Shown in pieces: positions 31,681 through 36,663 of a stretch of 64,000 bases of DNA. How positions within the stretch are numbered: position 1 is the stretch's first letter; each line of letters starts with the position of its first letter. The stretch is from Pontibacter beigongshangensis (GTDB taxonomy: Bacteria > Bacteroidota > Bacteroidia > Cytophagales > Hymenobacteraceae): positions 124,001-188,000 of the forward strand of contig NZ_VFSD01000008.1 in assembly GCF_014332515.1 (NCBI RefSeq), in the 5' to 3' direction. Position numbers and translations under genes: made by a program. The notes under the pieces are model-generated. The model saw nothing but the letters and a program-made list of their open reading frames with translations. It was not told the DNA's origin and did no database searches.

Positions 31681-31950
31681 TTAGGCTTCCGCTTGTGCTT
31701 TAGGAAGTACAGACACGAAAGAACGATCTTTTCTTCCTTTTCTGAACTCAACTACGCCATCTACCAGAGCAAACAGGGTATGGTCTTTACCGATACCTAC
31801 GTTTTGGCCTGGGTGGTGCGCAGTGCCTCTTTGTCTTACAATGATGTTACCAGCGATGATATCCTGGCCACCATAAATCTTAACACCAAGTCGTTTGGAA
31901 TGCGATTCGCGACCGTTGTTAGAACTACCAGCTCCTTTTTTGTGTGCCAT
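31681..31950 (-). CDS. rpmA: 50S ribosomal protein L27
   Basis: The 89-residue protein has the invariant L27 start [16 protein letters not shown] and the core [21 protein letters not shown]27 reaches toward the peptidyl-transferase centre. There is no cleavable N-terminal extension of the Firmicutes type. It lies 76 bp downstream of rplU on the same strand, the usual pairing. Confidence 0.98.
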
Positions 31951-32026: not shown

Positions 32027-32335
32027 TTATCCAATGCTCTCGATCAGGACCTTGGTGAAGTGCTGGCGGTGACCATTCTTCTTGCGGTATCCTTTTCTTC
32101 TCTTCTTTTTGAAAACGATAATTTTATCGCCTTTCACGTTGCCAAGGATTTTGCCGGTTACTTTAACGCCGTCTACGAAAGGAGCGCCTACAGTGATTGT
32201 GCCATTATCATCGGTAAGAAGAACATTGGTGAACTCAACGGCGTCACCATCGTTGCCGGAAAGCTTGCTAGCGTAGATAAACTTGCCGTTTTCTACTTTG
32301 GTCTGTTGACCTGCGATTTCTACAATTGCGTACAT
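32027..32335 (-). CDS. rplU: 50S ribosomal protein L21
   Basis: The protein has 102 residues when started at the ATG at 32335 (MYAIVEIAGQQTKVENG), the conserved L21 start. A TTG three codons upstream is in frame but unlikely. Family features include IVEIAGQQ at the N-terminus and the basic FKKKRRKGYRKKNGHRQ segment near the C-terminus that contacts 23S rRNA. It is first in the rplU-rpmA operon and transcribed away from the DnaA-box region. Confidence 0.97.
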   Translation of the reverse strand: MYAIVEIAGQQTKVENGKFIYASKLSGNDGDAVEFTNVLLTDDNGTITVGAPFVDGVKVTGKILGNVKGDKIIVFKKKRRKGYRKKNGHRQHFTKVLIESIG

Positions 32336-32438
32336 CAGCTTCAATGTATAATTAAAATTTTAGTCTGCAAAAGTACGGCACTATTTCGTATTATGCAAAC
32401 ACTTGTGCCTTAATTTGTTTTATAGCAGTTTTGCACTG

Positions 32439-32822
32439 TTATACACACAGATGTGGATAACGATGTTGAAATCCACGACACAAAAATTTAGACACCCAAA
32501 ACAACGGTGTAAGAACCTGAACAACAGGTGTATATCCCAAAATATCGAGTTGTGAGTTGTCCACAAATTAGCGCTGCCCCTCTGCCGACTCCCGTAACAA
32601 CACCTGCTCCGGGCTCCATAACGATTTGTATTATCGCAAGGCATGAGCCTGTTATATTATCTTACTGTTATGCTTTCATGGTATTTTCTTTAGCTGATAG
32701 AGCTGTTGCTGCCCGGCCTCAAGGTATTCACACATGAAAATATAAACAATTGCAGATGTTTATAAGGCTGTTTATTTTGATGTAATCGTCAGACAATCAA
32801 TAGATTACAAAAGTGTGGAGAA
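32439..32822. promoter_or_regulatory. DnaA-box cluster: candidate oriC or DnaA-controlled nrd promoter
   Basis: Two perfect DnaA boxes (consensus TTATNCACA) face each other: TTATACACA at 32439-32447 and TGTGGATAA at 32452-32460. One-mismatch boxes lie at 32557-32565 (TTGTCCACA), 32724-32732 (GTATTCACA) and 32814-32822 (TGTGGAGAA). The stretch is non-coding and AT-rich on its right side. Genes point away on both sides: rplU/rpmA leftward, nrdB/nrdA rightward. Confidence 0.65.
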
Positions 32823-32861
32823 ATTGAAAAACTTTAGCCCCCGATTTCAAGTTCTATTCCA

Positions 32862-32869
32862 TATATTTG
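32862..32869 (+). promoter_or_regulatory. Candidate -7 element upstream of nrdB
   Basis: TATATTTG matches TAnnTTTG. The -33 element is unclear, and it lies 115 nt before the preferred nrdB start, implying a long leader. Confidence 0.35.
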
Positions 32870-32983
32870 AAGTCCTGATATTGCAGAGTGACAGAAAATG
32901 CCGCCACTCATTCCTATAAAATCAATTGCGCCCCGAGACAGACTGTTTCACCAGGGTGCCTTAACTATAAAGCTTACGTGTTT

Positions 32984-33943
32984 ATGGAGCCAATACTAAA
33001 AGAGAACCCAAACCGTTTCGTCTTGTTCCCGATACAGCACGATGCCGTTTGGAAAATGTACAAGCTGGCAGAAGCCAGCTTCTGGACAGCAGAGGAGATC
33101 GACCTCTCGCAGGATCTCAAAGACTGGGAAAATCTGAACGATGGCGAGAGGCATTTTATCAGCCATGTGCTGGCGTTCTTTGCCGCCTCAGACGGGATTG
33201 TGAACGAGAACCTGGCGATCAACTTCATGAACGAGGTGCAGATCCCGGAAGCCCGCTGCTTCTATGGTTTCCAGATCATGATGGAGAACATCCACTCAGA
33301 AACCTACTCTTTGCTGATCGACACTTATGTGAAGAACCAGAAAGAGAAAGACCACCTTTTTAACGCACTGGAAACGGTGCCCGCCGTTGGCAAAAAAGGC
33401 GAGTGGGCGCTACGCTGGATCGAAAGCGAAAATTTTGCCGAGCGCCTTATTGCGTTTGCTGCCGTAGAGGGCATTTTCTTCTCCGGCTCCTTCTGCTCCA
33501 TTTTCTGGATGAAGAAGCGTGGCCTGATGCCGGGCCTTACCTTCTCTAACGAGCTGATCAGCCGCGACGAGGGCCTGCATTGCGACTTTGCCTGCCTGCT
33601 GTACTCGATGCTGGAGAACAAGCTGCCTGAAGAACGGGTACAGGAAATTATACGCGATGCGGTTAAAATAGAGCAGGAGTTCGTAACCGATGCCCTGCCG
33701 GTAGACCTGATCGGGATGAACGCAAAGCTGATGAGCCAGTACATTGAGTTTGTGGCCGACCGCCTGCTGGGCGAGCTGGGCTGCAGCAAGATCTACAACT
33801 CCACCAACCCATTCGACTTTATGGAGATGATCTCGCTGCAAGGCAAGACCAACTTCTTCGAGAAGCGCGTAGGCGAATACCAGAAAGCAGGTGTGGGCGG
33901 CGACAAAGACAAGAAGATGTTCTCGCTCGACGAGGATTTTTAG
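32984..33943 (+). CDS. nrdB: Class I ribonucleotide reductase, beta (radical) subunit
   Basis: The 319-residue diiron protein generates the radical for NrdA. Family residues are present: Asp70 ([10 protein letters not shown]), Glu101 and His104 (MENIHSETY), and the radical-bearing Tyr108. A second ligand set sits in [10 protein letters not shown] and in RDEGLHCDF. The sequence is of the eukaryote-like class I type common in Bacteroidota. The frame is open to a GTG at 32888, but the ATG at 32984 ([12 protein letters not shown]) is the family start. The DnaA boxes upstream suggest cell-cycle control. nrdA follows 338 bp downstream. Confidence 0.96.
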
Positions 33944-34281: not shown

Positions 34282-36663
34282 ATGTTAGTAGTTAAAAGAG
34301 ACGGCCGTCGCGAATCCGTAAAATTCGATAAAATTACCGCACGCATCGAGAAGCTGTGCTATGCCCTGAACATGGACTATGTGTCGCCGATTGAGGTGGC
34401 CAAGAAAGTGATCGATGGCATTTACGATGGTGTGACCACCGTGGAGCTGGATAACCTGGCTGCTGAAACGGCTGCCTCGCTTACCACCAAGCACCCCGAC
34501 TATGCGGTGCTGGCAGCACGAATTGCCATCTCTAACCTGCACAAGGTTACCAGCAAGTCGTTCTCCAACACCATGAAGCGCCTCTACACCTACGTAGACC
34601 CTAAGACCGGTGAGAACGCCTCGCTTATCGCAAAAGATGTGTACGAGATCATCCGGAAGCATGCCGCCACCCTCGACTCGACCATTATTTACGACCGCGA
34701 CTACAACTACGACTATTTTGGCTACAAAACGCTGGAGCGCTCCTACCTGCTGCGCCTGGACGGAAGAATAGTAGAGCGTCCGCAACACATGCTCATGCGC
34801 GTGGCTGTGGGTATCCACAAAGACGACATCGAATCTGCCATCGAGACTTATAATCTCATGTCTGAAAAGTGGTTTACGCACGCCACGCCAACGCTCTTCA
34901 ACGCCGGCACGCCCAAGCCGCAGCTTTCTTCGTGTTTCCTGCTTACTATGAAAGACGATAGCATACCGGGCATCTACGACACGTTGAAGCAATGCGCGCA
35001 GATCTCGCAGAGTGCAGGCGGTATCGGTCTGAGCATCCACAACGTACGCGCCACCGGCTCTTATATTAAAGGCACCAACGGTACGAGCAACGGCATTATA
35101 CCCATGCTGAAGGTGTTTAACGACACGGCCCGCTACGTAGACCAGGGTGGTGGCAAGCGTAAAGGTGCCTTTGCTATTTACCTGGAGCCCTGGCACGCTG
35201 ATATCTTCGAATTCCTGGACCTGAAGAAGAACCACGGGAAAGAAGAGAACCGCGCCCGCGACCTGTTCTACGCCCTCTGGACACCAGACTTGTTTATGAA
35301 GCGCGTGGAGGAGAACGGCGACTGGAGCCTGTTCTGCCCGCACGAAGCGCCTGGCCTGGCCGACTGCTGGGGTACAGAATTTGAGCGCCTCTACGAGAAA
35401 TACGAGCGTGAAGGCCGTGCCCGCAAAACCGTGAAAGCGCAGGACCTGTGGTTTGCCGTGCTGGAGTCGCAAATAGAGACGGGCACGCCGTATATGCTCT
35501 ACAAAGATGCCGCCAACAGCAAGAGCAATCAGCAGAACCTGGGCACCATTAAGAGCTCCAACCTCTGTACCGAGATCATGGAGTACACCGACGAGAATGA
35601 GGTTGCCGTGTGTAACCTAGCGTCGCTGGCGCTGCCACGCTTTGTAAAAGAGGAGAACGGCCACAAAACGTTCGACCACCAGAAGCTGTTCGATGTAACC
35701 TACCACGTAACCAAAAACCTGAACAAGGTTATTGACATAAATTATTATCCGGTGCCGGAAGCGCGCAACTCTAATATGCGCCACCGCCCTATCGGGTTGG
35801 GTGTACAAGGCCTAGCCGATACCTTTATTCACCTGCGCATGCCTTTCGAGAGCGAAGAAGCACGTGGCCTGAACAAAGACATTTTCGAGACGATCTATTT
35901 CGCTGCCATGACGGCTTCTAAGGATCTGGCCAAGAAGAATGGCGCGTACGAGTCGTTTAAAGGCTCTCCGCTGTCAGAAGGCAGGTTCCAGTTCGATATG
36001 TGGGGTGTAACGCCAGAGTCTGGCCGTTGGGATTGGGAAGAACTGCGCAAAGAGGTAATGGAGCATGGCGTGCGCAACTCGCTGTTGCTGGCGCCAATGC
36101 CAACTGCTTCTACAGCACAGATACTGGGCAACAACGAGTCGTTTGAGCCATATACCTCTAACATTTATGTGCGCCGCGTGCTGAGTGGTGAGTTTATGGT
36201 GGTGAACAAGCACCTGCTCAAAGACCTGATCGGCCTGGGCATCTGGAACGACAGAATGAAGAATGCCATTATCGCAGCCAACGGCTCGGTGCAGGACATT
36301 CCGAACATTCCGCAGAACATCAAAGACCTGTACAAAACGGTGTGGGAGATCAGCCAGCGTACAGTTATTGATATGAGTGCCGACCGTGGCGCTTACATCT
36401 GCCAGAGCCAGTCGCTGAACCTGCACGTGATGAACGTGAACTTCGGTAAGCTGACATCCATGCACTTCCACGCCTGGAAGAAAGGCCTGAAAACCGGCAT
36501 GTACTACCTGCGCACCAAAGCCGCTGTAGACGCCATCAAGTTCACAGTAGAGAAACAGGCTGCCGAAACGCTATCGCCGGTATACAGCAGCCAAGACCAG
36601 AACCGCAGCGACATGGCCTGCTCCCTAGATGATCCGGATTCCTGCGAGGCTTGCGGATCGTAG
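34282..36663 (+). CDS. nrdA: Class I ribonucleotide reductase, alpha (catalytic) subunit
   Basis: The 793-residue enzyme reduces ribonucleoside diphosphates. An N-terminal ATP-cone (about 1-95, [18 protein letters not shown]) gives overall activity control. The catalytic barrel follows with [17 protein letters not shown] (first active Cys), [24 protein letters not shown] (Asn, Cys, Glu of the active site) and [13 protein letters not shown]. The C-terminal tail ends SCEACGS, with Cys788 and Cys791 as the redox shuttle pair. All key residues are present, and ATG 34282 is unambiguous. A terminator follows at 36678. Confidence 0.97.

What the first reader, a model, noticed from the sequence alone, without database searches (positions are those of the whole stretch)
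32439..32822. Cluster of DnaA boxes where transcription direction switches: candidate origin of replication
Two perfect and three one-mismatch DnaA boxes lie in about 385 bp of non-coding DNA. Highly expressed rplU/rpmA run leftward and nrdB/nrdA rightward, as expected for leading-strand genes leaving an origin. The AT-rich right part could unwind. The alternative is DnaA control of nrdB, known for nrdAB in E. coli.
Basis: partly seen in the sequence, partly recalled or inferred. Interest (0 to 1): 0.7.

Follow-up and report, generated by a model that had tools for sequence, protein, structure and literature searches.

The report
DnaA-box control region upstream of nrdBA
The cluster of DnaA-binding sites is real and conserved in Pontibacter, but it is not where the chromosome starts to replicate; it most likely lets the replication initiator DnaA regulate the genes that make DNA building blocks, a link known from E. 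coli but apparently undescribed in this phylum.

Summary
The 648-bp gap between rplU (-) and nrdB (+) has 2 perfect and 7 one-mismatch DnaA boxes (dinucleotide shuffles: 2.4 expected, p about 0.0005). All 30 Pontibacter junctions examined keep a cluster.

The origin reading is not supported. In four relatives, GC skew turns 80-95 kb away on the nrdB side (about 340 kb away where a rearrangement separated the loci). That point has parS-mnmG and a denser DnaA-box array present in 30/30 species. In the window's own genome, skew minimum, parS and array lie together on another contig.

In Pontibacter a conserved box lies 48 bp upstream of the nrdB -7 element TATATTTG (the window's copy has one mismatch). 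In other Bacteroidota, most without rplU nearby, boxes recur at about 38, 49 and 59 bp, helically phased: 25 of 53 dissimilar promoters against 5.1 expected. The pattern replicated in held-out Sphingobacteriaceae (7/9, p about 3e-4) but not across the whole class (3/14). NrdR was absent from all 14 genomes tested. DnaA binding is not shown; titration, rplU control or another regulator remain possible.

The parts
32027..32335 (-). rplU (ribosomal protein L21), divergent neighbour; rpmA (L27) follows at 31681-31950
   Evidence: ORF and Pfam PF00829 E 3e-37, PF01016 E 3e-38
32368..32375 (-). Predicted -7 element of the rplU promoter (TACTTTTG)
   Evidence: Consensus TAnnTTTG, 40 bp before the rplU ATG; same place in relatives; not mapped experimentally
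32439..32447 (+). DnaA box TTATACACA (perfect), left arm of distal inverted pair
32452..32460 (-). DnaA box TTATCCACA (perfect), right arm of distal pair; conserved in nearly all Pontibacter at about -530 from the nrdB ATG
32557..32565 (+). DnaA box TTGTCCACA (1 mismatch); relatives mostly have TTTTCCACA at the same column, about -427
32724..32732 (+). DnaA-like box GTATTCACA (1 mismatch), not clearly conserved
32757..32765 (-). DnaA-like box TTATAAACA (1 mismatch); relatives mostly have TTATCCACA here, 104-105 bp upstream of the -7 element
32814..32822 (-). Promoter-proximal DnaA box TTCTCCACA (1 mismatch); relatives mostly have TTATGCACA or TTATACACA; starts 48 bp upstream of the -7 element (about -60 to -52)
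32862..32869 (+). Predicted -7 element of the nrdB promoter, TATATTTG; predicted start of transcription about 32874
   Evidence: Invariant in the Pontibacter alignment; consensus and -12 to -5 register from PMC6847099; start not mapped
32984..33943 (+). nrdB, ribonucleotide reductase small subunit
   Evidence: Pfam PF00268 E 7e-120; eukaryote-like R2
34282..36663 (+). nrdA, ribonucleotide reductase large subunit, probably co-transcribed with nrdB
   Evidence: 793-aa ORF downstream of nrdB; named from its sequence and position, not searched separately

Best explanation
The region is a DnaA-responsive control region of the nrdBA operon, about 90-110 kb from the chromosome origin in most Pontibacter. 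DnaA binds the conserved boxes (inferred). A promoter-proximal box centred near -56, just upstream of the -33/-7 promoter, places DnaA beside RNA polymerase (position shown; binding inferred). The upstream boxes, 104-105 bp before the -7 element and further up to the distal inverted pair, strengthen or modulate the assembly, perhaps by looping (inferred). Output would follow the amount or ATP/ADP state of DnaA, tying dNTP supply to replication in a lineage where NrdR was not found. Whether DnaA activates or represses is not known; the box position suggests activation at low occupancy.
For: Clusters in 30/30 Pontibacter junctions, boxes conserved in otherwise divergent sequence. Exact box 48 bp upstream of TATATTTG in 24 Pontibacter loci. 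In 79 dissimilar non-Pontibacter loci, boxes fall at 38-39, 49-50 and 59 bp: 25 of 53 promoter-bearing loci against 5.1 expected (maximum 13 in 2,000 randomisations), best period 11.15 bp, R 0.70 against a null maximum of 0.47; genomic background 2.8% of TAnnTTTG motifs. Most of these lack rplU, so the boxes follow nrdB. Held-out Sphingobacteriaceae at pre-set distances: 7 of 9, p about 3e-4. NrdR absent in 14/14 genomes. DnaA intact, with domain IV related to the DNA-bound E. coli structure 1j1v. DnaA control of nrdAB is established in E. coli (PMC8203912).
Against: No binding or expression data. In this strain both promoter-proximal boxes carry a mismatch, and the two perfect boxes are over 400 bp upstream and nearer the rplU promoter (72 and 85 bp from its -7 element). 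The distances were chosen after seeing the discovery set; a class-wide hold-out gave only 3 of 14 (p = 0.14), so it is limited to some lineages. Many Sphingobacteriaceae sites are TTTTnAACA, a weak match. In Hymenobacter the perfect boxes are not at the phased distances.
Confidence: 0.7

Rival explanations
1. DnaA reservoir: the cluster titrates DnaA or alters its nucleotide state, like datA or DARS, and acts on initiation rather than on nrdB.
For: High box density, about 90-110 kb from the probable origin in most Pontibacter; a high-density region near the origin is a published titration trait in E. coli (PMC12371093).
Against: Fixed phasing with the nrdB promoter across families is not needed for titration. 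The probable origin itself has more boxes. In G002 the locus is 350 kb away.
Confidence: 0.12
2. The distal perfect pair mainly controls the divergent rplU-rpmA operon.
For: The conserved pair is 69-85 bp from the rplU -7 element in Pontibacter, and boxes at 51-64 bp occur before rplU in several other Cytophagales.
Against: Phased boxes persist upstream of nrdB where rplU is not adjacent. No precedent known to me for DnaA control of rplU.
Confidence: 0.08
3. Another transcription factor, not DnaA, recognises these sites.
For: In Chitinophaga the sites form near-palindromes (TTTTCCACAccTGTTGAAAA); Sphingobacteriaceae sites drift to TTTTnAACA; an unexplained conserved element TTGAACAACTTT...AAGTTC lies between the box and the -7 element in Pontibacter.
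Against: Spacing and orientation of the pairs vary (2, 4 or 7 bp), unlike a fixed dimer operator; the same words fill the probable origin.
Confidence: 0.07
4. Chromosomal origin of replication at the rplU-nrdB junction.
For: DnaA-box cluster, divergent genes, moderately AT-rich DNA; coarse sampling first placed the skew minimum in the same 250-kb interval in G022.
Against: Fine skew minima are 79-95 kb away in three genomes and about 340 kb away in G002; parS and a denser, conserved array are at that point; own-genome contig C74 falls nearly steadily through the junction while C10 has the minimum.
Confidence: 0.02
5. Chance cluster of sites without function.
For: One-mismatch boxes are common: 112 in the window, as expected by chance.
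Against: p = 0.0005 for the gap and conservation in 30/30 junctions.
Confidence: 0.01

Closest known systems
E. coli nrdAB promoter regulated by DnaA (PMC8203912)
   Same: DnaA boxes upstream of a class I ribonucleotide reductase operon, away from oriC
   Different: Different promoter type (TAnnTTTG), gene order nrdB-nrdA, eukaryote-like NrdB, several box positions one helical turn apart among genera, NrdR not found; no binding data here
DnaA-linked ribonucleotide reductase genes proposed in B. subtilis and C. crescentus (PMC8203912)
   Same: Proposed DnaA control of dNTP supply
   Different: Other phyla; here the evidence is comparative sequence only
datA / DARS and origin-proximal DnaA-box regions of E. 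coli (PMC12371093)
   Same: Dense DnaA boxes outside oriC, fairly near the origin in most relatives
   Different: Tied in spacing to a promoter; IHF/Fis sites and effect on initiation not tested
Chromosomal origin oriC
   Same: DnaA-box cluster in non-coding DNA
   Different: Not at the GC-skew minimum and not near parS

Membership tests
Chromosomal origin (oriC) | Cluster of DnaA boxes in non-coding DNA | tested here: met
   9 boxes in 648 bp, p = 0.0005
Chromosomal origin (oriC) | At the GC-skew minimum | tested here: not met
   Minimum 79-95 kb away in three genomes, about 340 kb in G002, on another contig in the own genome
Chromosomal origin (oriC) | Close to parS | tested here: not met
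   parS is 88-101 kb away in three genomes and 343 kb in G002; own parS is on contig C10
Chromosomal origin (oriC) | AT-rich unwinding element | tested here: inconclusive
   71% AT over 80 bp, about 60% overall
Chromosomal origin (oriC) | Drives autonomous replication; peak of read depth in growing cells | not testable with these tools
   Needs experiment
DnaA-regulated nrd promoter | DnaA boxes upstream of the nrd promoter, conserved | tested here: met
DnaA-regulated nrd promoter | Fixed spacing or phase relative to the promoter | tested here: met
   not met class-wide
DnaA-regulated nrd promoter | A DnaA with an intact DNA-binding domain | tested here: met
   Own DnaA matches 1j1v over residues 378-464, E 1e-17
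DnaA-regulated nrd promoter | DnaA binds the boxes and changes nrd expression | not testable with these tools
   Needs experiment
NrdR-regulated nrd promoter | NrdR encoded in the genome | tested here: not met
   TIGR00244 absent in 14/14 genomes including the own; the control genomes ring
datA/DARS-type DnaA reservoir | Dense DnaA boxes acting on initiation | tested here: inconclusive
   Density shown; effect on initiation and IHF/Fis sites not tested

The most novel reading that the evidence does not exclude
In several families of Bacteroidota, where NrdR was not found, a ribonucleotide reductase of eukaryotic type (a type proposed in PMC3019208 to have come from eukaryotes) was independently placed under DnaA through boxes phased to a Bacteroidota-type promoter: convergent evolution of the DnaA-to-dNTP link, perhaps part of a wider DnaA regulon that includes the mraZ cell-division cluster.
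Probability: 0.4. Interest if true: 0.7.

Novelty: new member of a known kind. Interest (0 to 1): 0.48.

Why it matters
If DnaA controls nrdBA here, the coupling of replication initiation to dNTP supply is more general than the three bacteria in which it is known or proposed, and it is joined to a reductase of a different lineage where the usual regulator NrdR was not found. The work also gives a concrete, conserved origin candidate for Pontibacter, beside parS-mnmG and far from dnaA, useful for replication studies and origin plasmids.

Tried and rejected
Origin at rplU-nrdB: rejected by skew, parS and a better array. mraZ upstream boxes and the dnaA locus as origin: rejected, both far from the skew minimum in G022. 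A first pass over relatives seemed to show rplU missing beside nrdB in half of them; this was my error, because loci on the minus strand were not turned; corrected. The class-wide hold-out of the phasing failed and is reported. A family search meant for Chitinophagaceae went to a small family of mostly fragmentary genomes and was not used. Literature searches found no paper on DnaA control of nrd in Bacteroidota, nor an origin described for Pontibacter; the library is open-access only.

Full report
Setting. The window is part of contig C74 of a 5.75-Mb, 75-contig genome. The gap between rplU (-) and nrdB (+) runs from 32336 to 32983.

The observation. Two perfect boxes (32439-32447 +, 32452-32460 -) and four one-mismatch boxes lie in the stated interval, three more just left of it. 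Shuffles give p = 0.003-0.004 for the interval and 0.0005 for the whole gap. It is the densest 500 bp of the 200-kb contig. By the coordinates, rplU stands beside nrdB in the Pontibacter genomes in which both were searched, and all 30 junctions checked carry a cluster. A 14-sequence alignment shows the boxes as islands of conservation in otherwise divergent sequence.

Not the origin. In G022 (single contig, 5.46 Mb), 20 sampled stretches show skew turning from negative to positive between 1.385 and 1.638 Mb, with the maximum roughly opposite. Finer reading puts the minimum at 1,502,101, 89 kb beyond nrdB. G001 and G030 give 1,993,549 and 3,320,108, 95 and 79 kb on the nrdB side. In all three a parS (TGTTTCACGTGAAACA, at most one mismatch) lies just upstream of mnmG, within about 9 kb of the minimum; 5-7 kb further an intergenic stretch before an antiporter-like gene holds 9-11 boxes per 500 bp. 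This array is present in 30 of 30 genomes (median 12 boxes per 800 bp). G002 separates the two loci by about 350 kb; there skew turns at about 4.19 Mb, at parS (4,199,473) and the array (4,205,252), and stays negative through rplU-nrdB at 3.856 Mb. In the window's own genome the minimum, parS and array are together on contig C10, while C74 falls nearly steadily through the window. In these relatives nrdB is transcribed towards the origin, so it is head-on to the fork.

What it is. The nrdB promoter has the Bacteroidota -7 element TATATTTG (consensus TAnnTTTG at -12 to -5: PMC6847099). In Pontibacter an exact box starts 48 bp upstream in 24 loci, with a second at 104-105 bp in many. In the window the proximal site is TTCTCCACA, one mismatch. 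Across 79 dissimilar loci from other Bacteroidota, boxes with at most one mismatch concentrate at 38-39, 49-50 and 59 bp. Of 53 promoter-bearing loci, 25 have a phased box against 5.1 expected; the best period is 11.15 bp. Background in Pontibacter genomic DNA is 2.8%. Most of these loci have no rplU nearby, so the boxes follow nrdB. With the distances fixed in advance, held-out Sphingobacteriaceae gave 7 of 9; a class-wide sample gave 3 of 14. The arrangement is therefore lineage-limited: Hymenobacteraceae, Chitinophagaceae, Sphingobacteriaceae and some other Cytophagales.

Context. NrdR was not found in 14 genomes of the order. DnaA is intact, with a domain IV related to 1j1v. NrdB is eukaryote-like (mouse R2 514 bits, best bacterial-type R2 127 bits), the type for which transfer from eukaryotes to Bacteroidetes has been proposed (PMC3019208); I did not test whether this gene belongs to that transfer. 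DnaA control of nrdAB is established in E. coli and proposed in B. subtilis and C. crescentus (PMC8203912); a search of that review for 'Bacteroid' found nothing.

Mechanism and limits. DnaA at about -56 would sit beside RNA polymerase and the distal boxes would add cooperativity; binding and sign are inferred. In this strain the strongest boxes are the distal pair, 72-85 bp from the rplU -7 element, so co-control of rplU-rpmA or a titration role cannot be excluded. The phased distances were chosen after seeing the discovery set; only the Sphingobacteriaceae and class-wide tests were pre-set, and one of the two succeeded.

Noticed in passing
L178:10126-10626 (G000:C10:70126-70626); equivalents G022 1511576, G001 2005501, G030 3306051, G002 4205252: Probable oriC of Pontibacter: dense, mostly low-match DnaA-box array upstream of an antiporter-like gene, near parS and mnmG and the skew minimum, with conserved AACAAGTTAT and GTTATCAACTTGTTAACAG motifs; in G022 dnaA is about 750 kb away.
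   Followed up: partly
L032:7137-7318 (G000:C15:17137-17318); L056-L061: Three perfect TTATCCACA boxes at about -143(-), -134(-) and -105(+) upstream of mraZ, head of the dcw cell-division cluster, in 7 of 7 Pontibacter at nearly constant positions: possible DnaA control of division genes.
   Followed up: partly
32825-32856: Element conserved in Pontibacter, TTGAACAACTTT...AAGTTC (window variant TTGAAAAACTTT), between the proximal box and the -7 element of nrdB; function unknown.
   Followed up: no
G000:C10:74763-74771 and 75670-75678; G022 1505433 and 1506340: Two perfect TTATCCACA boxes, apparently inside mnmG, at matching places in the own genome and relatives beside the probable origin.
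   Followed up: no
G000:C10:63326 and 56026: Two further DnaA-box clusters (8 and 6 boxes per 500 bp) within 15 kb of the probable origin; genes around them not examined.
   Followed up: no
G000:C1:39030-39053: Inverted pair of perfect TTATCCACA boxes 6 bp apart; neighbouring genes not examined.
   Followed up: no
G004, G007, G018, G022, G033: These Pontibacter genomes carry a second nrdB copy (88-89% identical to the window's protein); its upstream region was not studied.
   Followed up: no
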